A DNA stretch of 33,010 nucleotides, from positions 1 to 33,010 of IMG/VR virus record IMGVR_UViG_3300023243_000066; one strand, written 5' to 3'. A program made the translations under genes and the position numbers. Below the pieces are notes generated by a model, which saw nothing but the letters and a program-made list of their open reading frames with translations, had not been told where the DNA came from and searched no databases. This DNA comes from a virus. Below are positions 4,687 through 28,926 of the stretch, one piece after another; the first letter of the stretch is position 1, and every line of letters starts with the position of its first letter.

Positions 4687-7600
4687 ATGGCCACTATACA
4701 GCAACTAAAAGACGCGGTAGTACGTGCTCGCGCAGCTAATGATGTCGAAGCAGCGCAGTACTTGCAAGAACAAATTAATAAAAGTACGCGTAGGTTAGAA
4801 CAGACCTATGGCCCACTAGCAAAAAAAGATAGTGGTGGCGCAGGGTTCTTTGAGAACGTAGGTAAAGGTCTAGCCTCCGGTGCTATTGGCATGTACGAGT
4901 CTGCTGCTTTAGGTGGAGCTGCCTTGCTAGAAGAGGAAGAAGAACTTAAAGCCCGCGACAAAATTAAGAGTGTGGCCGAGTCTTTCCGTCCCGAAGGTGG
5001 AGACAAAGAAGCCCTATCCTATAAGCTAGCCTCTGGCATTGGTTCTATTGGTGCCTTACTGCCTACCGCATTACTTGGCCCTGCCGCCTTGCCCGCTGCC
5101 GCTGCTATTGCCGGTGGTGCTGGTGCTGGTGAAGCAAGCGAACGCGCAAGAGAGTTTGGTGCTACCGAAGAAGAAAGAAGTTCTGTTACGTTCCGTGGTA
5201 CAGCTATTGGTCTGCTAGACCTAGCTCCCCTAGGTAGAATCGCCAAAGGACTTCAAATTCCCGGCGTAGCTAAAGTACTAGAAAAAGTTGACGCTAATGA
5301 CTTAAAGGGTATTAAAAACCGCATTCGTAGTGTAGCAACTACGGGCGTAGCTGAAGGCGCACAGGAAGCCGCTGCCGCAATATTACAGAATCTTAACGCC
5401 CGTGGGTATGACGCTGAAGCAGAATTAATCGACGCAGGTGTACTTGACGAAGCTACCATAGGCGGCGGTGCAGGTGCCATTATACAAGCCCTTGCAGACG
5501 TTATTGCGGGGCGTAGAGGCGGTAAGTCTGTAGGTACCGACGGCGCAATAGAGGGAGATGACAAGTCTGATGAACAAGCTGTAGAAGAAGTATTTGGCCT
5601 ACCTGCTTTACCTGAAACCGTTAACATACCCATGCCTGATGGCTCCCTACGTGAAAACGTGCCAATAGATGACCCTGAAGCGCGGGTATACTTACGCGCA
5701 CAAGAGTTGCAAGGCGACGCCGAATCACGCAGGACTACAGAACGTGATGCTATCCTTGAAGCGCAGGACAGAGAACAAGGGCTTGCCTCGCTAGTTAAAG
5801 ATGATGCGGCGGAACAAGCACGTAGACAAACTGGTGACTTATTCCCACTAGAAAAAGCAACGGCAGAAAAAGAAGCTGCGAGAGTAGCCGCACGCGCACC
5901 CGAGGGTATGAGTGACGCTGAAATGGCTGATGCTATGGCCGAACAAGACGCTGAGACCGAGAGAGCAAGGCGTCTGGAAGATGATGACCAGATAAAAGAA
6001 CAACCCGACATGATAGACCGTGCGGAAGACGAGCAGATACGAGACATAGAAGAGACGGCTGATATTGAAGCCTTGCTCGCAGAAGACGAAGCTCAAGCGG
6101 CTAGAGACGCAGAAGAAAAACGCGCTATAGAGCAGGAATACGCTGTTCTGTTTGAAGGCACCCTAGATGTTGCCGAGGCAGAGGCTAGAGATGCCGCTAT
6201 TGCAACCGAAAACAGAACAGCACTGGCACAGTTAGAAGCACAAGTTAAGGAGCGTGGGCCTAAAGAAACTCAACAGCAGCAGCCCCTAGGCGGTATGCAA
6301 ACGAAGTCTTCCGCTAAGAAACAAGGCGTGAGGCGCAATGCTACCGAAACTGCGGAGGCGTACGCAGCAGAAAAGAACATCCCTTTAGACACGATAACTC
6401 CCGCTGAGGGTAAACAAATTACTCTGACTGACGTTAGGATAGCAGAACGCCAGAAAGTTGCGGGTATGCCTACTAAGAAGACCGCCGACTTGGAGTCGCA
6501 GGCCGGTGCCGTACAGCCGTTGCCGAAAGAAGTTACCCAGCAGCTAAAAGGATTAGGTATTACAATACCTACTATAACGCCTAAAGCTGCACCAAAAACA
6601 CCCCCCGCGAAAACTGCCCCGAAAGCAGAAGCAAAAACAGAAGCGCCTGCTGATACCAGTACACAAGAAGCCCCTACCGACATAGGGGGTGATATTGAGT
6701 TCCCTACTGCCGTACCTCGTGGCACAGAGTTTACTAATCCTGATGATGTAACAGCGTTAACCGACCTAGTTACTAAGCCTATACCCCGAGATCAGAAGGG
6801 TATGGAGCAAACCGCTCAGACTTACATTAAGAGGTTTAAGCGCCCTGCCGATGCGTTTGAGGCTATAGCTTTTGAAATCGCAGAGAACACGCCTAAGTTC
6901 CGTGAACAGAAAGGTACTCCTACATCCGAGAAAGCTAAGTTTGCAGGTACTGGTGGAGCTAACACTAAAACTACATTGCAGTGGATAGAGAAGAATCTAA
7001 GCTCCGATGCTAAGGCAGAGATAGATCGCCGCATAGTCGAGCAACAGAAGAAGTCAACCGATGTAGAAAAAGATACGAAAGCTAGGGCTACTCAAGAACG
7101 AGACGACACTAAGGTAAAGCAACGCGAAACTAAGATAGCACAGGATGTAGACACCGCTACTGGTGGTCAGGCTACGGTAGTTGGTACATCTACCCCTTCC
7201 AAGGCTACTCCAAAAGTCGAGCCTAGCCCTACTGCCCGTGCAGACAGAGCTACCAAGAAAAAAGCATCAGGAGCGACTAAGAAAGAAGATGTAGTTAGCC
7301 AAGCAATAGAGAACATACAAGGCAGTAGGGGTAAGAATGCAAAGGCACCTCTTACCGAGGATATGTCTCCTGACCAATTACGTGCGAGGGTAGCGGCTGA
7401 TACTGCTAAGTTCATTGCCGGTGGTGGTAAGATCGACGTGCTTAACTTGGAGCTAGACCCCAAGGTTGCGCTGGAACTGAGTGAGGCTTTACCTAAAGAC
7501 GTTAAGGAGCTACTGAAGAAAGGGGACTTAAAAGCCGCATTACAGTCCCTTGCAAAAAGCACTAAGAGTAAGCGCGTCAAGCAGATAGCTAGAGCGTTGT

Positions 7601-10600
7601 CTGAGAACACTGGCACCACCAAAATAGAATTGGCTAATGAAGCTAGTCTAAAAGACAAAGGGTACGAAATCGGAGATGAGGGTAACGTAGCAGGTTTGTT
7701 CGATCCTAGGATCAACACTGTAATACTTAACTCTAACATGCCTCTGACCATACATGCGCTACTGCATGAGACTACGCACGCTACTACGCTTAATCAATTA
7801 AAGAACAAATCTCACCCAGCAACTAAGCAGTTGGAGAAGTTGTATAAAGACGTTAAGCCGTATTTAGATACAGCGTACGGTGCAGAGAACCTTAACGAGT
7901 TCATAGCTGAAGCGTTTAGTAACCCTGTGTTCCAGCGTAAGCTAGCCTCTATCAACCCTAAAGGCGAGGATATAAGTGCCTTGGAGCGGTTCTATCGTGC
8001 AGTCACTAACTATGTACGAAGACTTATCGGCATGGACACTAAGCCTGTAGGCTCTGCGCTAGACGAAGCTGATGCGGCTATTATAGCGATGCTGTCTCCC
8101 AACATGGCTACAAGCAATGATCCTGTTATGAACATGGTGTCTACTCAAGACGGAGTAAGAAAAGTACTTAACGACATGACAGACATACAGAAGCGTTTGT
8201 CCGAAGGCCCAAAGAAATCTTTCCTTGAAGGTGCTACAGACTTTTTAAACGGCACTGCGGATAGGACAGCTAAAGACTTCTTACTGAGACTAACTGGTTC
8301 GCAAGCATTAGGCGACGTAGCAAGAAACAATGGTTTCGGGCAGTTAGGGTTAAACCTAGACAAGCTATTTGGAGATCAACGAGGCAACATACAAAAATCT
8401 GACGAGAAGATAAATAAAGTATTAGAGGCTTATGATGCGTGGGCTAAGAAGAACTTAGAACAGAAGCAGTTGCTAGATAACATTATATATAGCCAAGAGC
8501 ATGGCGCTACTATTTATCAGGTAGACCCTACTCTTACCCGCGCAGAAGCTAAAAAGAGATACGGTAACCAGACTGCTCAAGACGACAGGAACCTATTTGA
8601 AGTATGGGAAGCTAATCAAGATCAATGGAAGAAATTAAATGATGGCGGTAGAAAGCAGTTTACCGAGTTACGTAATACCTATAAACGTATGCACGAAGAC
8701 CTCGTGGCTGTTATCAATCGTGAGATTGACGAGATAGGTGACGGCAAAGACAACGCTTCTAAAATAAAACTAAAGAAGCAGATGAACGAGCGTCTGATCT
8801 CATCTAACACTATGGAAGTATATTTTCCGTTGGTTCGTCAGGGTAACTACAAGTTGTCGTATGCAACTAAGATTAAAAACGACGATGGTACTTTTAGAGA
8901 AGAATCAGTATTCCTTATGTTTGAGACTGAGGGAGCACGGGACAGTGCGGCTAAGGAAGTAAAGAACGATGCCCTTACCGTTGCTGACACAGTAGAATCT
9001 TACGAGGGTGATACCAAAGCATCTAGCTACAGAAGTCCTCCCGCCGGTTCTTTCGTTGCTGACGTGTTAGATGTTATCGCTGCTAGCGTACCCAAAGATA
9101 AGCGAGGGGAAGTACAGGAGCAAGTAATGCGACTGTTTATTGAGACACTACCCGAAACTTCTTTTGCTAAGTCTCTACAACGACGTAAGAACACGTTAGG
9201 TTACATACAAGACGCTCGCTTAGGTATGCAGACTAAAGGCTTTGATCTAGGTGCCCAGATAGAGAAGATGCGTTATGGCGGTGAGATACGTGCAGTTGAG
9301 AAGGCTATAGACCTGAAGCATGGAGAAGGCGCTCCCGAGGGTGTTAACAAAAATACGTTTAATCTGGTTAAAAGAGAGCTAGACAGGCGTGCTAAGTTTG
9401 CCCGTGAAGGAGCCACTAACAAAGGCCCAGAGCAGTACTACCAACGTGCTAACCAGACAGCCTTTATATACACCATTGGTTTTAACGCCTCGTCCGCACT
9501 TGTTAACTTGTCTCAAATACCCCTAGTGGTGCTGCCGTACCTTACAAGTAAATTTAATGCTAAAGATGCTTCTGTAGCCTTGGGTAGAGCAGGTAAGTTT
9601 GTAACTTCCTCTAAAATATCTATCGACGAATACTACGACATCAAAGAAGTTAGCACGACAGATGCGGATGGCGTGGTAAGTCGAAAGGACGTATACACTC
9701 TTAAAGCAGGCCAAGAAAAGAAAATACGGGATACCTCTGCTACTAAAGCGGAAGCTGACGCGAAGATAAAATACTTCAACCGCATGATACCTTTGGTACA
9801 AAGGGCTAAGAACGGGGGTCAGATACATCACTCTACAATAGCTGATCAGTTAGGCGTAAACGATGCGGGACGACAAAAGAATAAGAACCCTGCGCTTAGA
9901 TTCCTAGATGGTACGTCTGCTTTGTCCGCTGTAATGTTCAACGCAGCAGAAAGATTTAACCGTCAAGTTACCCTAACGATGTCTTACGACCTTACTCTAA
10001 ACAAGCTAGATGCTATGCACGAAGCTAAGGGTGATAAGAGGTTCTACAGTGCAGTGCAGGCCAAGTTCATAGACGTACCTAGTAGTTCTGAAGCGCGTAT
10101 GGAATTAGCAGTAGCTGAAGCCGTGTACTTTGCACAGGAAACAAACGGTGGTTCTGTACTAGAAACTGCGGCAGGTTACTCACAGCAGGGTATCGGTCGT
10201 GTGGCGCTGATGTATAAGAGTTATGGCCTACAGATGTACTACACCATGATTAAGTCTGCCATACTAGCGGGAGACAATATGTTCGCTAAAGATGCTGAAG
10301 GAAAGGAACTACGTAACATGGCGCTTAAACAGGCTATGGGGGTTCACTTATCCGCGTTGTTCTTTGCTGGGGTGCAAGGACTACCGTTATACGGTATGGT
10401 CAGCATGATATGGAACATGTTCTTAGATAACGAGGAGGACGATGCTCGCACCATAACACGTAAGTACCTAGGTGAAGGTTGGTACAAAGGCGGGTTAACT
10501 GCGCTTACGGGTACAGATGTAGCCTCGCGTGTTAGCCTAAGTAACTTGTTGTTGCAGGAGAACAGGTTTAACAAAGACCCTTCTCTGGAAGAAAGCCTAG

Positions 10601-11175
10601 GATTCTACTTGGGTGGCCCTGCATTGAGTACAGGCACTAGGCTCAAACGCGCCTATGATGACTTCAACTCAAGCGAGTACGGTAGCTTTGAGCGTGGTAT
10701 GGAAAGCCTTATGCCCGCTGGCCTTACTAATGCTTACCGTAGCACAGTTGGACGTTACGCAAGAGAAGGTGGTATACGGTCTAGGAGAAAAGACCCTATA
10801 TATGATGACATGACTGTCGGTGATTTCGCGGCTCAGGCTCTAGGATTCCCCCCTGCGGAATACACTTACCGTCAAGAAGTATCTGGTAGGAACAAAGGCG
10901 TAGAGAAAGCAGTTACAGAGAAGCGTTCCATGCTAGCCAAGAAGTTCTATGTAGCACAGCGCATGGGTGACCATGAGGTTATGGCAGAGGTACTGAAAGA
11001 TATTAGTACCCATAACAAGCGTCACCCTACTGCGGCACTGACGGGGGAGCAAATAACCAAGTCAGTTAAATCTCATATGGCTACGTCAGCCAAGATGCAC
11101 AATGGGGTTACGGTAAATCCTATAATGAAGTTCGCTATAGAGAGAAGTAACAGGGAATACAACAAGGGCTACTAA
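4687..11175 (+). CDS. Giant virion protein with embedded HExxH metallopeptidase-like domain (2162 aa)
   Basis: Largest gene in the window. Residues 110-160 form a hydrophobic Gly/Ala stretch that could cross or disrupt a membrane. Residues about 340-530 are very acidic and helical. Residues about 590-900 are Lys/Pro/Thr-rich linker. At residues 1027-1031 there is HETTH, followed about 45 residues later by NEFIAEAF, an arrangement typical of zinc metallopeptidases (two His plus a downstream Glu). The C-terminal 1000 residues contain hydrophobic segments near 1594-1620 and 1860-1880. This architecture matches very large ejected or polyvalent phage proteins that enter the host with DNA. The start has only a weak ribosome site (GTAGG). 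I see no RNA polymerase motifs, so it is not assigned as an N4-type virion polymerase. Confidence 0.8.
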   Translation: MATIQQLKDAVVRARAANDVEAAQYLQEQINKSTRRLEQTYGPLAKKDSGGAGFFENVGKGLASGAIGMYESAALGGAALLEEEEELKARDKIKSVAESFRPEGGDKEALSYKLASGIGSIGALLPTALLGPAALPAAAAIAGGAGAGEASERAREFGATEEERSSVTFRGTAIGLLDLAPLGRIAKGLQIPGVAKVLEKVDANDLKGIKNRIRSVATTGVAEGAQEAAAAILQNLNARGYDAEAELIDAGVLDEATIGGGAGAIIQALADVIAGRRGGKSVGTDGAIEGDDKSDEQAVEEVFGLPALPETVNIPMPDGSLRENVPIDDPEARVYLRAQELQGDAESRRTTERDAILEAQDREQGLASLVKDDAAEQARRQTGDLFPLEKATAEKEAARVAARAPEGMSDAEMADAMAEQDAETERARRLEDDDQIKEQPDMIDRAEDEQIRDIEETADIEALLAEDEAQAARDAEEKRAIEQEYAVLFEGTLDVAEAEARDAAIATENRTALAQLEAQVKERGPKETQQQQPLGGMQTKSSAKKQGVRRNATETAEAYAAEKNIPLDTITPAEGKQITLTDVRIAERQKVAGMPTKKTADLESQAGAVQPLPKEVTQQLKGLGITIPTITPKAAPKTPPAKTAPKAEAKTEAPADTSTQEAPTDIGGDIEFPTAVPRGTEFTNPDDVTALTDLVTKPIPRDQKGMEQTAQTYIKRFKRPADAFEAIAFEIAENTPKFREQKGTPTSEKAKFAGTGGANTKTTLQWIEKNLSSDAKAEIDRRIVEQQKKSTDVEKDTKARATQERDDTKVKQRETKIAQDVDTATGGQATVVGTSTPSKATPKVEPSPTARADRATKKKASGATKKEDVVSQAIENIQGSRGKNAKAPLTEDMSPDQLRARVAADTAKFIAGGGKIDVLNLELDPKVALELSEALPKDVKELLKKGDLKAALQSLAKSTKSKRVKQIARALSENTGTTKIELANEASLKDKGYEIGDEGNVAGLFDPRINTVILNSNMPLTIHALLHETTHATTLNQLKNKSHPATKQLEKLYKDVKPYLDTAYGAENLNEFIAEAFSNPVFQRKLASINPKGEDISALERFYRAVTNYVRRLIGMDTKPVGSALDEADAAIIAMLSPNMATSNDPVMNMVSTQDGVRKVLNDMTDIQKRLSEGPKKSFLEGATDFLNGTADRTAKDFLLRLTGSQALGDVARNNGFGQLGLNLDKLFGDQRGNIQKSDEKINKVLEAYDAWAKKNLEQKQLLDNIIYSQEHGATIYQVDPTLTRAEAKKRYGNQTAQDDRNLFEVWEANQDQWKKLNDGGRKQFTELRNTYKRMHEDLVAVINREIDEIGDGKDNASKIKLKKQMNERLISSNTMEVYFPLVRQGNYKLSYATKIKNDDGTFREESVFLMFETEGARDSAAKEVKNDALTVADTVESYEGDTKASSYRSPPAGSFVADVLDVIAASVPKDKRGEVQEQVMRLFIETLPETSFAKSLQRRKNTLGYIQDARLGMQTKGFDLGAQIEKMRYGGEIRAVEKAIDLKHGEGAPEGVNKNTFNLVKRELDRRAKFAREGATNKGPEQYYQRANQTAFIYTIGFNASSALVNLSQIPLVVLPYLTSKFNAKDASVALGRAGKFVTSSKISIDEYYDIKEVSTTDADGVVSRKDVYTLKAGQEKKIRDTSATKAEADAKIKYFNRMIPLVQRAKNGGQIHHSTIADQLGVNDAGRQKNKNPALRFLDGTSALSAVMFNAAERFNRQVTLTMSYDLTLNKLDAMHEAKGDKRFYSAVQAKFIDVPSSSEARMELAVAEAVYFAQETNGGSVLETAAGYSQQGIGRVALMYKSYGLQMYYTMIKSAILAGDNMFAKDAEGKELRNMALKQAMGVHLSALFFAGVQGLPLYGMVSMIWNMFLDNEEDDARTITRKYLGEGWYKGGLTALTGTDVASRVSLSNLLLQENRFNKDPSLEESLGFYLGGPALSTGTRLKRAYDDFNSSEYGSFERGMESLMPAGLTNAYRSTVGRYAREGGIRSRRKDPIYDDMTVGDFAAQALGFPPAEYTYRQEVSGRNKGVEKAVTEKRSMLAKKFYVAQRMGDHEVMAEVLKDISTHNKRHPTAALTGEQITKSVKSHMATSAKMHNGVTVNPIMKFAIERSNREYNKGY

Positions 11176-19696: not shown

Positions 19697-19889
19697 TGAT
19701 GTACATCCCTAATCCGTACGTTACAGACCAACCTAGTAGGCCAATTAATACTACCAACTCTACCCTACGTATGACTACGGGGCGGAATAACCAATCCTTA
19801 ACACCTCTTGGTGTGCGGGTACCGGCATCTTTTATAGCCTTGTCCGCAAACTTATGCGCTTCTTTCATAGCTTTTTCTATATCACTCAT
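19689..19889 (-). CDS. Small single-pass membrane protein (66 aa)
   Basis: The ATG overlaps the polymerase stop (ATGA). Residues 1-40 are charged and helical; residues about 44-64 form one hydrophobic segment (ELVVLIGLLGWSVTYGLGMY), so the protein is probably anchored with its N-terminal part in the cytoplasm (Arg/Lys before the helix). It is too short for a classical holin with several helices, though a one-helix holin-like or host-takeover protein cannot be excluded. No lysis partner is adjacent. Confidence 0.6.
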   Translation of the reverse strand: MSDIEKAMKEAHKFADKAIKDAGTRTPRGVKDWLFRPVVIRRVELVVLIGLLGWSVTYGLGMYING

Positions 19890-21721
19890 CCTGCCGCCTC
19901 CCCATAAGACTTACCTGTATCTGACTCACACGTTATAGGCAAGCCCTCTGCCCATGTAGAAGTAGTGCTCATGCAATCTTCTATGTACTGTTTGGCCTGA
20001 CTAAGTTCGGTCTCTGGTACACAACATACCACGGAATCGTGAACCGTCAAAGCTACCTTGTATTTCTTAGCTATTGCTAACATCTGATCACCAATGATAC
20101 ATCTAGCTATCGCTTGGCATATGTTCTCTGCTACCTTACCACCATATATTCTGGTGTATCCACGGCGCGTTCTGTACTTAAACTCTGGGCCACGTTCACC
20201 CTGCTCATACTGTAAGTCGTCATAGCGCATCTTCAAGCCAGAGGGTAGTAATACCCAACCGTTACGCCCGTCTACCCCATACTTGATTATATCGTTGGGG
20301 CCAAAGCTACCTGAGTTACCACGCGACATCTCTATTAACATGTTCTGACATGCACGCCAGAAGTGGTTTATCTTCCAGTTGGCATCGCGGTAGATACTTA
20401 CTACCCTACGTGCCTCCTCAACATCCATGTGAGTTCCGAACGATTGTAATTGATCTGCAAACCGAACTGCGCCCATACCATAACCGCAACCTAGGATTGT
20501 AGTCTTACCAACAAAGCGTTGCTCCTTGGTAACATCTTCTTCAGGTATGCCATATATCTTCGACGACATCTTTATGTAAACGTCTTCACCGTTCAGGAAA
20601 GCTAATACTAAATCATCCTGTCCCGCCAACCATGCTAGTACTCGGGCTTCAATCTGCGACGAGTCACAGTCAATAATCATGTAGCCTTCGGGGGCAAGCA
20701 TACTGTTCTTTAACTTCTTACCATTAACACCACGGCTAGGTAGGTTTTGGATGTTGATCTTGTCATCGCCTCCCCACCTACCAGTGTGCGCCGCGTAGTA
20801 TCTTACGGGTACCGGGAGCAGCCCACGTTTAGCTATACCTATAAACCTCTCAGTACGTGATTCCTCTAATGTGCTTTTGGTGCCTAATCGAGAGGTCACC
20901 AGTGCCTGTACACGCGAGTCATGGTGGCTAGCTAACGCCTTAAACTGTTCGTCGTTCTTGGCGAACGCGTAGGTCTGCTTACCCGTAGTAGGGCTAGTCT
21001 TCATAGGGGGTATAACACCTAGTCCTACAAGTAACTCAGCAAACTTAGGGTTGCTCATAAGTTCTTTCTTAGTTGCACCAGAGGACGTTATCAAGTCTTC
21101 TTTAATCTGCTTGGTATCTTCTAGGTGGTGCTCTAGTAGTCCCAAGTCCAACTCCAGTATAGGCTCCACAAACATACGCAAGGTGCAGTCTATGATGCGT
21201 AGCTCCCCCTTCGGGAACCCCTTACCCATGATGTTAAACAATCTATATGTTAACTCAACATCATTGATGCAGTAGTCCCCGTACCGACTTAGTTCTTCTT
21301 CGGTGAAATCTCCACGGCGCTTCCCGATAGCGTCGAGTACTTCCGTTCCCTTCGCTCCAATATTGTACCTTTGAGCAAGCGCAGAGAGAGAGCCGCCAAC
21401 TTCGATCCCATGTAGAGCACGGGCAATGCACAGAGTATCGGCAAGGAGGCGAGGATGAACATCAAACAGCCAACTAAGAATGGCACCATCAAACAAAGTG
21501 TTGTGGCAAAGGAGAATAGAATTTTCCCAGTCGAAAGTTTGTAAGTATTGTCTAAGTTCTTCATGTGTTCCACTAGCCCACTCCGTTCCATCATTATTTA
21601 CTTTTAACCCTATACCTATCACCTCAAAACGAGGGTCACGGATATAGGATTCCATTGTCATCTTACGTAAGGAAAAGTCTTTGTCATAATACGTTTCCAG
21701 ATCAACCGTTATCAGGTTCAT
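19886..21721 (-). CDS. polA: DNA polymerase, family A, with 3'-5' exonuclease domain (611 aa)
   Basis: Replicative polymerase. The exonuclease domain is intact: DLE at residues 7-9, HNTLFDGAI, and the YGDYCINDVE motif. The polymerase motifs are motif A DCDSSQIEARVLAWL (about 349-363), motif B RFVGKTTILGCGYG (402-415) and motif C VHDSVVC (about 559-565). There is no 5'-nuclease domain, as in T7-like and marine phage enzymes. The residue aligned to E. coli Pol I Phe762 is Leu410, which affects incorporation fidelity and speed in this family. It overlaps genes on both sides by 4 nt and stands in one operon with nucleases and small proteins. Confidence 0.95.
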   Translation of the reverse strand: MNLITVDLETYYDKDFSLRKMTMESYIRDPRFEVIGIGLKVNNDGTEWASGTHEELRQYLQTFDWENSILLCHNTLFDGAILSWLFDVHPRLLADTLCIARALHGIEVGGSLSALAQRYNIGAKGTEVLDAIGKRRGDFTEEELSRYGDYCINDVELTYRLFNIMGKGFPKGELRIIDCTLRMFVEPILELDLGLLEHHLEDTKQIKEDLITSSGATKKELMSNPKFAELLVGLGVIPPMKTSPTTGKQTYAFAKNDEQFKALASHHDSRVQALVTSRLGTKSTLEESRTERFIGIAKRGLLPVPVRYYAAHTGRWGGDDKINIQNLPSRGVNGKKLKNSMLAPEGYMIIDCDSSQIEARVLAWLAGQDDLVLAFLNGEDVYIKMSSKIYGIPEEDVTKEQRFVGKTTILGCGYGMGAVRFADQLQSFGTHMDVEEARRVVSIYRDANWKINHFWRACQNMLIEMSRGNSGSFGPNDIIKYGVDGRNGWVLLPSGLKMRYDDLQYEQGERGPEFKYRTRRGYTRIYGGKVAENICQAIARCIIGDQMLAIAKKYKVALTVHDSVVCCVPETELSQAKQYIEDCMSTTSTWAEGLPITCESDTGKSYGEAAG

Positions 21722-22214: not shown

Positions 22215-22532
22215 CTATCCTCCGAGGATTAGTTCAATGTCATTCATGCTATCTTCATTAATTACGCACGCGATTCCGTACGCCTCGCTTATCTCTCTGA
22301 GATTCTTTTCCTGTAAAGCTGTTGGCATGTTCTTACCTGCCTTACACTCTATCCCAAAGAACTTACCGTTGTAGCATCCTACTATGTCAGGTACTCCGCT
22401 CTTACCGTATCCCCCAGTAGCAGGGAAAAAGTAGTAGCACCCTAACGCCTTTAACTGCTCAACTATCTTCTTCTTTACCTTCCCTTCCGGTGTCATCGCC
22501 ATCTGCTTTGCCTCCATTTGATACCAGTTCAT
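22215..22532 (-). CDS. VRR-NUC family endonuclease (105 aa)
   Basis: Small stand-alone PD-(D/E)XK nuclease. The motif SGVPDIVGCYNGKFFGIECK contains the catalytic D and ExK, followed by the helix TALQEKNLREI, all typical of VRR-NUC proteins, which in phages are thought to cut branched DNA. I place the start at the ATG at 22532, where AAGG precedes by 7 nt; the longer frame begins with a GTG with poor spacing. Its first 74 nt overlap the end of a membrane-protein gene in another frame. The DUF3310 gene follows directly. Confidence 0.85.
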   Translation of the reverse strand: MNWYQMEAKQMAMTPEGKVKKKIVEQLKALGCYYFFPATGGYGKSGVPDIVGCYNGKFFGIECKAGKNMPTALQEKNLREISEAYGIACVINEDSMNDIELILGG

Positions 22533-22663: not shown

Positions 22664-22942
22664 TCATTTCTCTACCCAAAAAGTATGTTCGTCAATACGC
22701 ACACCGACACCTTCTACGTGTGTAGTTGGTGGGGTCGGGTCACATATCATAAGTACCGATAGCTTTTCTTCAAGCCATTGCGGTAGTCCTTTATCCAAAT
22801 CATATATCCCCTCACATTCCGAGTCAACACAATTCATACCCAAACACGTTACCTCGATACTATTCTCATGGCCTAGTGATGATACGCGGTAAGTGTTGGG
22901 CATACTAAGTGGATCGTCCCATATCGTGTTACTGCGTGACAT
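22664..22942 (-). CDS. Protein similar to the C-terminus of the preceding 309-aa protein (92 aa)
   Basis: I choose the ATG at 22942, which overlaps the upstream gene by 14 nt; the longer frame (to 22999) would overlap by 71 nt. The last 45 residues carry the pattern LP..L..KLS.L.IC....VG.R..E..F.V, which matches the last 40 residues of the upstream 309-aa protein. The first half has two cysteine pairs around NCVDSECEG. It is likely a duplicated domain kept as a separate gene. Function unknown. Confidence 0.6.
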   Translation of the reverse strand: MSRSNTIWDDPLSMPNTYRVSSLGHENSIEVTCLGMNCVDSECEGIYDLDKGLPQWLEEKLSVLMICDPTPPTTHVEGVGVRIDEHTFWVEK

Positions 22943-23858
22943 AGAAGACGGCCTCACTATGACGATACCCGACTTGTGGTATGAATGCGTCCTCCTCACA
23001 TATCGACAGGGTAGACAGTTTACCTAACACCCCCTCTGGTAAGGTGTCCTCGTAGTAAGTAGCCCACTTTAGAGTAGCGTTTCTGGCAAGCCCACGAATA
23101 TCTTCTATAGGACATACATCGAATGCTTGGTTACCTAATTTCTCATACACCCGCACGACACTTAAAGGTAGGTTACGATCTTCTTCTGCCTGATCCTTTA
23201 CAGCCTTACCCGCACGTAGGGCAGTTAGGTTGTTAGCTAGGGACTTGTCCATGAACTCATACCCAGAATCCAACAGTAAGTACATCTCCTTTAGTATGGG
23301 GGCACATGCTTCCTCCATATTCTTATCCCAACTAGAACCAAACATATTACGCCATATATTTGAGTGCGCCTCAGATGAGGAACTCCGGTACCTATGCGCG
23401 GCGTCCTTGTACTTGTCAATACTAACAAGAGCCACCTCTTCATGGGAGAACCTGCGCAGGTACTTCTTTGCATTCTTTAGCCCGACATGAGCTAGGGTAC
23501 TAACTTTCGTACGAAACCCCTCAGAGTAGTTGTCGTACTTGTTGTTCTGTATGTCCCTACTGTGTACGACATACGATAACTTCTCTTTGGCATGGTCGAA
23601 GTCTACATCTATCCACCCCATAACGTACTCATCGTCAGACATGTAAACGTGATACACCGAATGATTAATATCGCTACTACTAGCGCGTACCTCACACCCC
23701 CTGAACGCTTTCTTTACCTCTTGTGCAAACCACCGCATCTCTTTGCGGTTAGTCGCATTGCCTATCAGGTTAGGCTCGGGGGAGGTAACAACCTCTAACA
23801 CCTCTGCAACAGTGTGTATTTGACATTTGCCGTGTATGTCATACATATAAGTAGCCAT
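22929..23858 (-). CDS. Protein of unknown function (309 aa)
   Basis: Starts with GAGG 9 nt upstream, 1 nt after the stop of the 286-aa gene, so the two form a pair. The N-terminal 130 residues are mixed a/b (HVYMSDDEYVMGWIDVDF) and the middle is helical and charged, with a Ser-rich RYRSSSSEAHSN segment. The C-terminal 40 residues (KLSTLSIC ... VGYRHSEAVFYV) recur in the next gene. No enzyme motif is evident. I recall similar pairs in other marine phage contigs, but with no assigned role. It belongs to the operon downstream of the MoxR-VWA genes. Confidence 0.65.
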   Translation of the reverse strand: MATYMYDIHGKCQIHTVAEVLEVVTSPEPNLIGNATNRKEMRWFAQEVKKAFRGCEVRASSSDINHSVYHVYMSDDEYVMGWIDVDFDHAKEKLSYVVHSRDIQNNKYDNYSEGFRTKVSTLAHVGLKNAKKYLRRFSHEEVALVSIDKYKDAAHRYRSSSSEAHSNIWRNMFGSSWDKNMEEACAPILKEMYLLLDSGYEFMDKSLANNLTALRAGKAVKDQAEEDRNLPLSVVRVYEKLGNQAFDVCPIEDIRGLARNATLKWATYYEDTLPEGVLGKLSTLSICEEDAFIPQVGYRHSEAVFYVTQ

Positions 23859-23859
23859 G

Positions 23860-24720
23860 CTATTTCACCTCTCTGTATTCTTCAAATGAGTCAGTGAACT
23901 CACCCATATAGTTAGCCCACGCGTTGAACTTGGTGCGGAACTTCTTAGGGTCACTTGTTAAGCTGACGTTAGTAGTTGGGTTTGTGTGTCCCCAGTACCT
24001 GTTACCCATGCTCGGTGCTAGATCACACAGGAACGCGTGGAGCATATCAGTACGAGCCTCGTGCTGTTCGTCCATCAGCACACATAGAAACAAGTCACCC
24101 TTGACACTGTTAGCCGACCATCTAGCCTCGCGGTTGGAATCCCAATTCATAGTGCCTTCTATCATTGGGGTCATAGTCCATGCCCAGTGTAGGTACTCTT
24201 CGATAGCTTTCTTGAATGGTTCCTTCTTCTCTTTGTTAACACGTACTCGTGTGACAGGTAACGGGTGCGGTTCGCTGGTAAGCGTCCATGACTCTTGTGG
24301 TGTATGTCTGTCGGTAAACACTATGGTCTTGTCTTTGTCCTTGGGTAGGTAGTAGCGGTTGCCCTCATAACGTATGTACTGCTTGCCTCCGTCCACTATG
24401 AAGCCCATGTTCCTCGGCATACACCGATCAAGGAATGAGTACCTACTGCAATGTGCGTGGTCACCATCTCCATTACGAAACTCTACTGTGTCAGTGTTAT
24501 CGGCATTGCGAGTCCAGACCACTGCGGCACTGCTTGGGTCACTGCCAGTAGCACCGTAGTCTACTAACATGTAACAGGTTGGTGATTCCTTGACGATACA
24601 TTCCCACTTACGTCTGCGATCCCCGAGAGGAACTATGTTGGTGCCCCTGATAGGTTTGGTGGTGTTATACAAATGCTCCACATGTGTGAAACTGTCTAGC
24701 CCATAATTAAACATAGCCAT
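23860..24720 (-). CDS. Protein of unknown function behind a palindromic leader (286 aa)
   Basis: The ATG at 24720 has GGAG 7 nt before it, and an exact copy of the 18-bp palindrome lies 20 nt upstream. The N-terminus reads MAMFNYGLDSFTHVEHL, followed by Arg/Lys-rich GDRRRKWECIV and then a b-rich middle. The C-terminal third has conserved-looking Trp-rich helices (EEYLHWAWTMTPM, FNAWANYMGEF). I do not recognise a fold or active site. Sharing its leader type with the MoxR gene and the 308-aa gene suggests coordinated expression with them. Confidence 0.65.
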   Translation of the reverse strand: MAMFNYGLDSFTHVEHLYNTTKPIRGTNIVPLGDRRRKWECIVKESPTCYMLVDYGATGSDPSSAAVVWTRNADNTDTVEFRNGDGDHAHCSRYSFLDRCMPRNMGFIVDGGKQYIRYEGNRYYLPKDKDKTIVFTDRHTPQESWTLTSEPHPLPVTRVRVNKEKKEPFKKAIEEYLHWAWTMTPMIEGTMNWDSNREARWSANSVKGDLFLCVLMDEQHEARTDMLHAFLCDLAPSMGNRYWGHTNPTTNVSLTSDPKKFRTKFNAWANYMGEFTDSFEEYREVK

Positions 24721-25281: not shown

Positions 25282-25394
25282 TAGCACACCCCCCTTAGCA
25301 CGCAGTCGCTATACGTCATGTTGTTAACAAACAGATATAGTGCTGTCACTATTACAGCTAGCACCCAGTACTTAACGTCTTCTCGTATATACAT
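25281..25394 (-). CDS. 37-aa single-pass membrane microprotein
   Basis: A short frame that fills the gap between the VWA gene and the HTH-like gene exactly. Its ATG overlaps the VWA stop (TAATG, 25392-25396) and its TAA overlaps the next ATG (25279-25283). The product begins MYIREDVKYW, followed by the hydrophobic stretch VLAVIVTALYLFV, and ends with Cys-containing CVLRGVC. The double stop-start overlap is hard to explain by chance. It probably sits in the inner membrane; function unknown, but its place suggests a partner of the MoxR-VWA pair. Confidence 0.65.
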   Translation of the reverse strand: MYIREDVKYWVLAVIVTALYLFVNNMTYSDCVLRGVC

Positions 25395-26668
25395 TACATA
25401 TCCCTCGACTTGATGTGTACTGCCTTACCCTCATCGGGTACTGCGTGTTGATTGTCTAGTATCGCCCAGAGGACGGGGCAAGTCCAACTCCCCCAACCGC
25501 TGTACAAGTAGCCATCAGTCAGAACGATACATGCTTGGGGCTTGATGCTCTCGTCGATCATGTACTGCGTGACACAATTGACATCAGTGCCGCCACCACC
25601 CATAGGTTTGGTAGATGTAACCAGACTGTCTAACTCGTGCATGTCGTACGACTCGTCACCCACAACACTGCTACCCCAATACAACAGACGTATCTTGTCA
25701 GGTTTTACTGTGTCGCATACACCCTTGACCTCGGATAGGAACGTGGTCAGTTCCCCCTGACCAATAGAACCTGACGTGTCAATGGCAATCACTAACTCGC
25801 CAACTTGCTCACTGATACCAGATGGCATGATGATGCCCTGACTCATTAGCCTACGGTTGGGTCGTGCGTATGTAGAGTAGTCGTTACCTGCACACGTTGT
25901 CTGTATAAACTCACGTAGTACCTCACGCCAATCGACCTGTGGCTGTAGTAACTCGTCGAGATCGCGGTTGCCAGTACCACCCATCTTACCTGCGGCCATA
26001 GCACCCTGACGTATTGCCTCGTCAATGTCCCGCGCCAACTCGCGTTGCTCCTCCTCGGATAGTGATTGAGCGCCGTCCCAGTCATGCTCATCGAATCCAC
26101 TTCCCTGACCTATAGCGGTGTTTTGTGAGCCTGTGGTAGCGCCTCCACTCTGTTCACCCTCACCCTCTGACTCGTTATCCTGTGAGGCATTACCACTACC
26201 CTGCCCGGACTGCTGTTCTTCTTGTTCCTTACGTATTAGCTTGAACACTTGGGCTGTGTCCATGTCACGGTACTTCTCATCTATTAGCCCACCATCGGGT
26301 ATCTTGGCGAACCCATCTTGATTGTCATCCATGATCTTGAGGTTGATAACATAGTCACATGCCATGTTAGCTGTCATATGATCAATGTCATGTAGATGTT
26401 TCCACGTAGTCAGGTGACTGTATAGCTTGTGGTAGTTCTCGTGCAGTAGTAGCCCACGTAATTCGGTATCGGTCAGCCCATCAACAAACGCACGCCCATA
26501 CTTCTCATCACGCCCATTGGTACAGGCTGTCGGTATATCGTCATCTATCGTCTTCTCGCCTATCATCAACACACCGGCTAGTGCTGTGTACTTGGGGTTG
26601 CCCATGACAGCGACGATTGCCTTGGACAATCGCTCCTCTGCTGTAAGCTGTTTACCTATAGTTAACAT
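25394..26668 (-). CDS. Metallopeptidase-like / VWA domain protein (424 aa)
   Basis: Two-domain protein of the type paired with MoxR ATPases. The N-terminal domain has HENYH (76-80) followed by ANMACDYVIN (100-109), as in the putative metallopeptidase domain (DUF2201 type). A low-complexity Gln/Ser/Gly/Glu linker spans about 148-195. The C-terminal VWA domain has an intact MIDAS: DTSGS (297-301), GGGGTD (357-362) and LTDG (383-386), so it should bind a metal ion and a partner. AAGGAG before the ATG is strong. It follows the MoxR gene by 10 nt. N4-like phages also carry a MoxR-like and VWA pair (gp24, gp25) of unknown function. Confidence 0.85.
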   Translation of the reverse strand: MLTIGKQLTAEERLSKAIVAVMGNPKYTALAGVLMIGEKTIDDDIPTACTNGRDEKYGRAFVDGLTDTELRGLLLHENYHKLYSHLTTWKHLHDIDHMTANMACDYVINLKIMDDNQDGFAKIPDGGLIDEKYRDMDTAQVFKLIRKEQEEQQSGQGSGNASQDNESEGEGEQSGGATTGSQNTAIGQGSGFDEHDWDGAQSLSEEEQRELARDIDEAIRQGAMAAGKMGGTGNRDLDELLQPQVDWREVLREFIQTTCAGNDYSTYARPNRRLMSQGIIMPSGISEQVGELVIAIDTSGSIGQGELTTFLSEVKGVCDTVKPDKIRLLYWGSSVVGDESYDMHELDSLVTSTKPMGGGGTDVNCVTQYMIDESIKPQACIVLTDGYLYSGWGSWTCPVLWAILDNQHAVPDEGKAVHIKSRDM

Positions 26669-26678
26669 AATCTACTCC

Positions 26679-27761
26679 TTATACCTTGTCTGCGGCGAAC
26701 ATGTAGTTGTTCTGCATAGCCCACTCGGTGAACTTCTTGCTCTGCATAACTACGTTACGGTGTGCGTAGGTATTACTGCGGCACCCATTAGCGAATAGAC
26801 CTTGCGCTTCCTTGTCTAGTCGTTGCATGTATGTCACCCACGAATCTACCCAGTCACGGTTCATCGCACCTAGTGCGCGGTACACTGTCATACATATAGC
26901 TGATGCTGACTCGGGTACCTTGGCGTTGAGCGGATCGTCCTTGATAGACTGTAGGCTAGGTAGTTGGTCGGCTAACTTCACGAGCGCCATCATGTCCATC
27001 GCTCCGCGATCACCGATAGTACCCATGAGTAAAGCTGTTAGGCTGTGATCGTCATACATATCGCGTAGCTTGAGCACGTCACTAGCGGCCTCCAATGATC
27101 TTGGGGTGATAAACGCGGCACGTTGCGCCTTGGGGTGATATATGTACGGGTTGTCATCGGGGTTCTTCACATCCTCGAAGCCTTGTAGTACCTGCGGGAA
27201 CTCACGTACGAAACCTAGCACACTGTGATCGACCTCGTTGTTGATACCCCAGTCGATAAACTCGTCACTGGTAGACTTACGTGCTGTGACTACGGTGATG
27301 CGATTGCGGGTATGTGGGGGTAACAGATCGCCCACACCCTCTGCGCTTAGGTTGGTAGTAGCGAACACAATGCTACCCTCTGGTAACTTCTTTGTGCCTA
27401 CCTTGTGCTCTAACATAGTAATGTTGAGGGCGTTCTTCACTGCGGGGTTAGCCTTACCCAACTCGTCAATGTTAATCAACAGTGGCTTGCCTAGGTGTAT
27501 ACCGAACTCCTCGTTGGGTAGGTATGTGACGTAACCCTCCTCGGTGTTGAGTGATGGTATGCTGATGTCACCTAAGTCCTTGGTGGTACAGTCGAAGTAA
27601 CAAGGTGTGTGGTTGGGGAATCTCTCTGCTAACGTCTTTAATAGTGATGACTTGCCGTTACCCATGTGACCCTGTACAAGTATGGTGCGCTTGTGTCCAA
27701 CAGTGGCGATAGCGTTGGCGATTTGGTCTAGCGATAGTGCGTACATATTTTGTGTGTTCAT
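26679..27761 (-). CDS. MoxR-like AAA+ ATPase (360 aa)
   Basis: The AAA+ motor is complete: Walker A GHMGNGKSS (31-39), Walker B LLINIDELGKA with D99/E100, sensor 1 FATTN (133-137) and an arginine-finger segment PPHTRNRI (148-155). The protein ends in a helical C-terminal domain. MoxR ATPases work with VWA proteins as chaperone-like remodelling machines for metal insertion or complex assembly. The VWA partner is the next gene. The ATG at 27761 is preceded by GGAG and, 19 nt upstream, by palindrome copy 2. The substrate in the phage cycle is unknown. Confidence 0.9.
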   Translation of the reverse strand: MNTQNMYALSLDQIANAIATVGHKRTILVQGHMGNGKSSLLKTLAERFPNHTPCYFDCTTKDLGDISIPSLNTEEGYVTYLPNEEFGIHLGKPLLINIDELGKANPAVKNALNITMLEHKVGTKKLPEGSIVFATTNLSAEGVGDLLPPHTRNRITVVTARKSTSDEFIDWGINNEVDHSVLGFVREFPQVLQGFEDVKNPDDNPYIYHPKAQRAAFITPRSLEAASDVLKLRDMYDDHSLTALLMGTIGDRGAMDMMALVKLADQLPSLQSIKDDPLNAKVPESASAICMTVYRALGAMNRDWVDSWVTYMQRLDKEAQGLFANGCRSNTYAHRNVVMQSKKFTEWAMQNNYMFAADKV

Positions 27762-27780
27762 AGTGGTATTGCTCCGAGTG

Positions 27781-27798
27781 TGTCTACATATGTAGACA
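27781..27798. promoter_or_regulatory. 18-bp palindrome, copy 2
   Basis: Exact TGTCTACATATGTAGACA between the stop of the 65-aa gene and the MoxR start, 19 nt before its ATG. The leader GCTCCGAGTG beside it (plus-strand sense) matches copy 3 at 8 of 10 positions or better. Confidence 0.85.
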
Positions 27799-27800
27799 GT

Positions 27801-27998
27801 TTATTTGATTAGTGTCTCAACAATGCGACCGCTCTCAGTCACTATCTTATAATACGTCACGCGGTGTGTGCGTAGCGTGCGTAGGTTCTTGTAGTGCTTG
27901 GTGCGCTTGTAGTTGCGCACTCGTAACACTGCCTGCCCATCTAGGTTACCCAGTATCTGATAGTTGTTTGCATCATAGGCTTCGACGTAATATTTCAT
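27801..27998 (-). CDS. Small basic protein of unknown function (65 aa)
   Basis: I place the start at the ATG at 27998, 1 nt after the upstream stop, with GGAG 7 nt before it. The protein is very basic and Tyr-rich (VRNYKRTKHYKNLRTLRTHR), probably a small b-barrel that binds nucleic acid. It is followed directly by palindrome copy 2. No recognised family. It may be translated together with the 308-aa protein. Confidence 0.6.
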   Translation of the reverse strand: MKYYVEAYDANNYQILGNLDGQAVLRVRNYKRTKHYKNLRTLRTHRVTYYKIVTESGRIVETLIK

Positions 27999-27999
27999 C

Positions 28000-28926
28000 T
28001 TACATCTCCAACGATGGTAGTGACTTGATAGCTTCATCTACTGCCCTTTTGGTTTCGGCACGGAATGACTCGTTGTTACGTAACCCATCGGGAGTGACCC
28101 CGCGTAGCGCATCGTCTAGCTTGAGTGCCATCGCTGACATCTGGCTGTCACCTGCTACGTTACACACGTTAAGCAGTTCTACCATGTCTAGCACGTTGTC
28201 CACTAGCGTATCGCGGAACACTTTCTTCTTGTCAGCCCCGCCATAGTCCAGTCGCTCGGACATATTAGACAGTGCCTTGTACGTACGATCCCAGACATCC
28301 TGCATAGCAGTGTGCAACTGCTTACTATAGTAGTCGCTGTAGTGTGACTCCAACACGTCACGTTGCTCGTTGCCCACGTCCACACGAAAATCACCTGCCT
28401 CGGGTAGCGGTATATATGATATGTTGAACGCAAACTTATTGCGGATAGACTCCTCGGTCGGGTAGTCCTCACGTATAAACAAGTTACCGATGCGTGCCTG
28501 TGCGCGGCTTACTTCCCAAGTGTAGTTGCTACAAAACGTATCGACCATACCTGTAAACTCGTTCTGTAGGTCGGTCATCTGTTGATGGTACTTGAAGTAC
28601 TGCGCTGTCGGTAGCAGTCGCATCCCTAGGTCAGACCATGGCATTGTCATGCTGTAGTGGATGTTGCGTGCATTGGTCACGAATTTCTGGATGGCTGTCA
28701 GTTCATCGCAATTACCCAGTAACTTCTTATTGACTGATGCCGTACCGTTATCGGCATAGTTCTGACTAGTCACTGATGCTGATGCTGACTTGTCTTTCTT
28801 GCGGCCAGTCCAACAGCTAATCTTTAATTCGCATAACATGGCACTGGATGCGATTGATGGTGCGTTTGCCTGTGGTGCCTGTGGTGCCTGTGGTGCGTTG
28901 GTTACTGCTTGGTTTGTATTGTTCAT
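28000..28926 (-). CDS. Protein of unknown function, first gene of the MoxR-VWA operon (308 aa)
   Basis: The ATG has GGAG 9 nt upstream and palindrome copy 3 at 18 nt. Residues 1-30 are low complexity, with three APQ units encoded by a 9-bp tandem repeat. The rest is helical and soluble (SSAMLCELKISCWTGRKKDK, then a long middle). There are no catalytic motifs and no membrane segment. MoxR-VWA pairs usually act on a dedicated client encoded beside them; this protein is the best candidate client or adaptor by position. I recall similar proteins next to MoxR-like genes in other phages, but cannot name the family. Confidence 0.7.
   Translation of the reverse strand: MNNTNQAVTNAPQAPQAPQANAPSIASSAMLCELKISCWTGRKKDKSASASVTSQNYADNGTASVNKKLLGNCDELTAIQKFVTNARNIHYSMTMPWSDLGMRLLPTAQYFKYHQQMTDLQNEFTGMVDTFCSNYTWEVSRAQARIGNLFIREDYPTEESIRNKFAFNISYIPLPEAGDFRVDVGNEQRDVLESHYSDYYSKQLHTAMQDVWDRTYKALSNMSERLDYGGADKKKVFRDTLVDNVLDMVELLNVCNVAGDSQMSAMALKLDDALRGVTPDGLRNNESFRAETKRAVDEAIKSLPSLEM
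28868..28896 (-). repeat. 9-bp tandem repeat encoding Ala-Pro-Gln units
   Basis: Three GGTGCCTGT-type units on the plus strand inside the 308-aa gene, read leftward as APQ repeats. Likely a slippage-prone flexible N-terminal linker. Confidence 0.8.

What the first reader, a model, noticed from the sequence alone, without database searches (positions are those of the whole stretch)
22664..23858. Tail-domain duplication between two adjacent unknown genes
The C-terminal 40-45 residues of the 309-aa protein and of the following 92-aa protein share KLS.L.IC and VG.R..E..F.V in the same order. A free-standing copy of a partner's terminal domain often acts as a competitor, a cap or a heteromer subunit.
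Basis: seen in the sequence. Interest (0 to 1): 0.5.

Follow-up and report, generated by a model that had tools for sequence, protein, structure and literature searches.

The report
Phage gene pair sharing one domain
In a varied group of uncultured phages, a long protein and the small protein encoded right after it carry two anciently duplicated copies of the same small domain and were found together wherever the sequence was complete enough to see, so they probably work as one two-part complex of unknown task.

Summary
The last 37 residues of the 309-aa protein and of the 92-aa protein are similar in sequence (pair E 0.001; family profiles E 2.3e-12). The relationship covers the whole 92-aa protein: predicted structures show the same order of elements (strand-strand-strand-helix-strand-strand) in residues 232-309 of the long protein and 17-91 of the short one. 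This is no recent duplication: in a tree of 39 genomes all long tails and all short proteins fall on two sides of one well supported branch. Both genes were present in 68 of 69 loci found with the long family and 56 of 60 found with the short one; every miss lies at a contig end. They sit between an AAA+ ATPase/vWA-metallopeptidase pair and an Hjc-like nuclease plus DNA polymerase A. Neither protein has a Pfam, NCBIfam, PHROG or PDB relative at a trustworthy score. Competitor or cap roles are not excluded. Interest is moderate: a new, well-defined, testable module of unknown function.

The parts
22929..23858 (-). long gene, 309 aa, no known family
23454..23858 (-). long protein residues 1-135: N-terminal alpha/beta module (helix 35-51, four strands 55-99, helix 123-133) with the motifs N-K-Y and K-N-A-K-K-Y-L-R
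   Evidence: model; alignment
23175..23444 (-). long protein residues 139-228: three long helices joining the two ends
   Evidence: model
22932..23165 (-). long protein residues 232-309: tail domain, strands 232-240, 243-251, 266-269, helix 277-286, strands 297-299, 304-308
   Evidence: model; profile hits
22664..22942 (-). short gene, 92 aa, the same domain free-standing, no known family
22667..22897 (-). short protein residues 16-92: strands 17-23, 28-34, helix 36-40 (extra), strand 45-48, helix 55-65, strands 80-82, 87-91
   Evidence: model
22929..22942 (-). 14-base overlap: the short gene's ATG lies inside the Tyr-Val codons of the long gene's end; the same 14 bases of overlap in 32 of 68 loci
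22952..22955 (-). GAGG, possible ribosome-binding site 9 bases before the short gene's ATG (read by eye)
   Evidence: sequence
25394..26668 (-). DUF2201 metallopeptidase-vWA protein, conserved upstream neighbour
   Evidence: Pfam; 43 of 43 loci
26679..27761 (-). AAA+ ATPase (MoxR-like by analogy), conserved upstream neighbour
   Evidence: PHROG 1297; Pfam AAA_16 under its cut-off; 37 of 38 loci
28000..28926 (-). DUF3150 protein next to the ATPase
   Evidence: Pfam
23860..24720 (-). 286-aa gene directly before the long gene, no known family
   Evidence: 31 of 46 loci
22215..22526 (-). Hjc-like nuclease (PHROG 93), conserved downstream neighbour
   Evidence: 54 of 54 loci
19886..21721 (-). DNA polymerase A, conserved downstream neighbour
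   Evidence: 45 of 49 loci

Best explanation
The two genes are one module. SHOWN: the short protein is a paralogue of the long protein's C-terminal domain, split off once before the sampled phages diverged; the two are inherited together, next to or near each other, in one conserved block of genes. INFERRED: the short protein binds the tail domain of the long protein as a pseudo-symmetric heterodimer, so that the long protein (head module, helical stalk, tail domain) carries a second, separately made tail domain; the overlapping genes help to make both in matched amounts. INFERRED, weaker: the complex is an adaptor or client of the neighbouring AAA+ ATPase/vWA-metallopeptidase pair, or an accessory of the neighbouring nuclease and polymerase.
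For: Homology. Same order of predicted elements. One split, long 39 and short 39, SH-aLRT 99, with similar branching inside both halves. Both genes in 68 of 69, 56 of 60 and 62 of 67 loci of three overlapping scans, all misses at contig ends. Two copies in 11 of 13 whole records by the joint profile, one in the other two, whose long tail shows only with a profile that includes such tails. Gene overlap in 42 of 68 loci. Long tails resemble the short protein of their own genome more than those of others: 15 clade representatives, mean score 53.2 vs 47.1, 17 of 10000 permutations; not explained by letter make-up (shuffled difference 0.6, sd 1.3). Neighbours.
Against: No contact was tested. The own-pair signal weakens to 160 of 10000 when one of two near lineages is dropped and could reflect gene conversion or shared pressure. 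In 12 of 68 loci the genes lie 266-660 bases apart, so overlap is not needed. Co-inheritance within one conserved block is also expected of genes whose products never touch. The short model is weaker (pLDDT 81, pTM 0.70, first 9 residues under 50), and I could not superpose the two models.
Confidence: 0.5

Rival explanations
1. Both proteins form homomers through the shared domain, and the short one competes with or caps assemblies of the long one (dominant-negative regulator).
For: Same fold order; a free copy made from an overlapping gene would be present whenever the long protein is.
Against: The two copies have been distinct since one ancient split, with different favoured residues (short: P-x-W before the helix and W in the last strand; long: Y in the last strand). 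A simple competitor would be expected to stay similar to its target; only a mild own-genome similarity is seen.
Confidence: 0.15
2. Paralogues that went separate ways: each tail domain binds a different partner (for example the ATPase/vWA pair on one side, nuclease or polymerase on the other) and they are neighbours only because the block is conserved.
For: Other neighbours are equally conserved (vWA 43 of 43, nuclease 54 of 54), so neighbourhood alone is not specific; some lineages have other sequence in between.
Against: The 286-aa gene (31 of 46) and the DUF3310 gene (25 of 49) come and go in the same block, while the long-short pair was not broken in any locus with room to see both.
Confidence: 0.27
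3. Chance or convergence of a short motif in two unrelated proteins.
For: The single pair is only moderately significant (7 of 5000 shuffles).
Against: Profile comparison E 2.3e-12; the short-family profile picks the long tail as the only other match in 11 of 13 whole records; same order of predicted elements.
Confidence: 0.02
4. The short frame is a frameshift extension of the long protein rather than a gene of its own.
For: The frames overlap (the short frame is open from 23023; overlap 14 bases from the ATG).
Against: In 26 of 68 loci the nearest ATG of the short frame lies 7-660 bases behind the long stop, so the arrangement needed for a fusion is not conserved; a start M-S-x is conserved in the nearer relatives.
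Confidence: 0.02

Closest known systems
A0A6J7X9R3, A0A6J5RNX1, A0A6J5RE98 (uncharacterised proteins of uncultured Caudovirales phages, BFVD)
   Same: Foldseek E 1.4e-18, 8.4e-10 and 2.3e-08 to the long model; the first has TM 0.73-0.75 over 311 columns
   Different: no name or function; 14-19% identity; whether a short gene follows them was not examined
AAA+ MoxR / vWA-metallopeptidase pair of group 2.2 jumbo phages (PMC7824862, passages read)
   Same: the neighbouring pair in this window has the same make-up: AAA+ ATPase and a vWA protein with an N-terminal metallopeptidase domain
   Different: the passages read mention no long-short pair; those authors propose virion assembly, here the pair lies among replication genes
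vWA and AAA ATPase gene pairs of haloviruses (PMC7911831, passages read)
   Same: vWA next to AAA ATPase, with a Holliday junction resolvase in the same genome module
   Different: no counterpart of the long-short pair is mentioned in the passages read
Replication regions of Rhizobium phage RHph_TM3_14A and Pseudomonas phage KPP25
   Same: among the nearest annotated phages by DNA polymerase A (34.6% and 33.2% identity); RHph has ATPase and metallopeptidase genes before the polymerase
   Different: neither whole record has a match to the short-family profile
PAS / roadblock / longin-type small alpha-beta folds
   Same: many rows of the structural second look for the short model are of this kind (the fold names and that such folds often pair are recalled)
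   Different: best Z 4.7, all under the level of middling chance matches; no sequence match

Membership tests
Paralogous domain pair (short gene = free-standing copy of the long gene's tail) | significant sequence relationship over the whole domain | tested here: met
   sequence match strongest over 52 columns, the first two strands match through the joint profile, which was trained on both families
Paralogous domain pair (short gene = free-standing copy of the long gene's tail) | same predicted fold | tested here: met
Heteromeric complex | physical contact | not testable with these tools
   only single chains can be predicted
Heteromeric complex | strict co-occurrence | tested here: met
   68 of 69, 56 of 60, 62 of 67 loci, misses at contig ends
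MoxR-vWA chaperone cassette (neighbouring genes) | vWA protein with metallopeptidase domain beside an AAA+ ATPase | tested here: met
   PF13203 E 3.3e-27 and PF09967 E 4e-14; ATPase by PHROG 1297 E 2.4e-47
MoxR-vWA chaperone cassette (neighbouring genes) | ATPase belongs to the MoxR family proper | tested here: inconclusive
   only general AAA_16 under its cut-off in Pfam and weak BchI-ChlI in NCBIfam
PAS/roadblock/longin-type fold (tail domain) | clear structural match to a solved member | tested here: inconclusive
   Foldseek none at E <= 0.001; VIA best Z 4.7
RWD/UBC-type fold (N-terminal module of the long protein) | clear structural match to a solved member | tested here: inconclusive
   VIA best Z 7.4 to a Mediator chain over 92 residues, under the stated level of 8; the name RWD/UBC is my recall of that kind of fold
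PHROG 1456 'DNA binding protein' | profile match of the long protein | tested here: not met
   E 0.19 for the window protein; among 40 members scanned it is not in the 25 families shown by member count

The most novel reading that the evidence does not exclude
The pair is an obligate third component of a phage-specific AAA+/vWA-metallopeptidase machine: the short protein completes or exchanges with the long protein's tail domain, and the ATPase remodels this complex to switch the phage replication machinery (nuclease, polymerase) between states.
Probability: 0.15. Interest if true: 0.65.

Novelty: new variant of a known kind. Interest (0 to 1): 0.42.

Why it matters
It defines two new protein families with one shared, apparently undescribed domain, and ties them as a fixed pair to an AAA+/vWA block whose task in phages is unknown. 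If the two bind, it gives a concrete candidate for what that block acts on, in a wide group of phages for which no relative of this pair was found in the searched collection of phage records.

Tried and rejected
Known families: Pfam, PHROGs, NCBIfam, PDB sequences: only weak, scattered matches (best isolated ones: phrog_32141 E 0.00029 and phrog_14093 E 0.00033, each in 1 of 40 members; TPR_MLP1_2 E 0.0014 under its cut-off), none shared by the family. I take them as chance.

Cultured relatives: tblastn against 50,697 phage records with seven queries and megablast of 10 kb of the window gave nothing convincing; best E 0.02 to an unannotated 5.9-kb faecal phage record, not followed up.

Frameshift fusion: rejected because of gaps in 26 of 68 loci. 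Recent duplication: rejected by the tree ('quick' method, 92 columns for 78 rows, many inner forks open, long branches flagged; the long/short split is starred). An AU test was not run.

Structural relatives: Foldseek against the PDB found nothing at E <= 0.001 for either model. In the second look, fits of the helices to SMC/Rad50-type chains look like plain coiled coils.

Literature (search listings only unless said): no paper held 'DUF3150' with 'phage' or 'DUF2201' with 'MoxR'; 'MoxR', 'VRR-NUC', 'phage' gave one paper on CRISPR, passages read, not about this; other searches. Passages were also read of PMC7159879 (nothing on this). So 'not in print' means only these searches of an open-access library.

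Rows dropped: loci too short on a side were left out of the neighbour counts (eligible n given); A7 uses only the last 100 codons of long open frames; L162, where the short domain ends a 254-codon open frame, was cut to 104 codons; tree rows are 39 genomes picked from 57 distinct long and 60 distinct short tails thinned at 90% identity (whose automatic sorting put a few cut-off or odd frames in the wrong class; these were left out by hand). The three locus scans share many contigs, so their counts are not independent.

Full report
WHAT IS THERE. The window is a 33,010-base virus record. At 22929-23858 on the minus strand lies a 309-aa gene and, overlapping its end by 14 bases, a 92-aa gene. 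The pair alone gives BLASTP E 0.001, and 7 of 5000 shuffles of the short protein score as well: suggestive, not decisive.

RELATIVES SETTLE IT. IMG/VR contigs gave 10 loci for the long protein, 60 for the short one and more with alignments as queries. Aligned families compared as profiles gave E 1.8e-6 (16 vs 16) and 2.3e-12 (40 vs 39, 52 columns, 27% identity). As an independent check, the short family alone was used to search 13 whole virus records in six frames: besides the short gene it found one further place, the tail of the long gene, in 11 of 13; the two failures belong to one divergent lineage, where the tail is seen with a profile that already includes such tails, so that part is less independent. 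The shared stretch does not come from shared DNA: the genes overlap only at the last codons, and the end motif of the long protein is also kept where the genes lie hundreds of bases apart.

EXTENT AND FOLD. AlphaFold2 gave a confident model of the long protein (pLDDT 91.7, pTM 0.84): an N-terminal alpha/beta module, three long helices (139-228), and a tail domain with strands 232-240, 243-251, 266-269, helix 277-286, strands 297-299 and 304-308. The short protein (pLDDT 81.4, pTM 0.70) has strands 17-23, 28-34, 45-48, helix 55-65, strands 80-82 and 87-91, plus a small helix 36-40. By sequence alignment the helix, the glycine hairpin and the last strand coincide. So the unit is about 75-78 residues, practically the whole short protein. 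Coordinates could not be read, so superposition was not done.

HISTORY. In a tree of the domain from 39 genomes (78 rows, 92 columns), long and short each need one change of label (shuffled mean 26), support 99. The lineages recur on both sides, as expected if one ancient split was followed by joint inheritance. Each long tail is on average somewhat more like the short protein of its own genome: 0 of 2000 permutations over 39 genomes (not corrected for relatedness), 17 of 10000 over 15 clade representatives, 160 of 10000 over 14; letter make-up does not explain it. This could be matched contact surfaces, or partial gene conversion. It is not a strict rule: the own short protein ranks first for 3 of 39 long tails, median rank 10.

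CO-OCCURRENCE AND NEIGHBOURS. Both genes are found in 56 of 60 loci, 68 of 69 and 62 of 67; every exception is cut by a contig end. No N-terminal module without the domain, and no third architecture, was seen among the ORFs of the fetched loci, apart from an extended open frame in L162/L163. Whole records hold two copies in 11 of 13 and one detected copy in 2. In the 69 loci, counting only those with enough sequence: vWA protein upstream 43 of 43, ATPase 37 of 38, 286-aa gene 31 of 46; Hjc-like nuclease downstream 54 of 54, DUF3310 25 of 49, polymerase A 45 of 49. The short ATG overlaps the long stop in 42 of 68 loci, by 14 bases in 32; in 14 it follows within 40 bases, in 12 at 266-660 bases (nearest ATG taken mechanically).

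HOW IT MOST LIKELY WORKS. I favour a heteromer: the short protein pairs with the tail domain of the long one. Shown: homology, strict pairing, overlap. Inferred: contact and matched dose. The link to the AAA+/vWA pair rests on neighbourhood alone. In print, such pairs in phages and haloviruses are proposed to be chaperone and co-chaperone or adaptor (PMC7824862 and PMC7911831, passages read).

AGAINST KNOWN THINGS. No library has either family at a trustworthy score. BFVD holds structural relatives of the long protein without function. Weak structural resemblances (short: PAS/roadblock-like, Z up to 4.7; long N-terminus: Mediator chain, Z 7.4) are under the level at which the tool says they mean more than a common arrangement. 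Two of the nearest phages by polymerase lack the pair.

VERDICT. Observation confirmed and extended; interpretation partly supported. A new, apparently obligate two-gene module of unknown task: of moderate interest, easy to test.

Noticed in passing
window 25394-28926: DUF3150, AAA+ ATPase and DUF2201 metallopeptidase-vWA genes in a row; no paper found for DUF3150 with phage.
   Followed up: partly
L173 2443-3694 and 6112-7979: The vWA and polymerase genes of this contig appear as several overlapping open frames, as if broken by frameshifts; sequencing error is likely.
   Followed up: no
L063 5235-5549 and L064 4845-5207: In this lineage the short protein carries an extra C-terminal stretch; in L064 it holds an R-V-G-I motif twice.
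   Followed up: no
L162 4351-5112 (L163 4645-5406): The short domain ends a 254-codon open frame; whether the protein is really longer there was not settled.
   Followed up: no
window 4687-11175: A 2162-aa open frame, presumably a large virion protein; coding strand and base skew switch near 11.2 kb.
   Followed up: no
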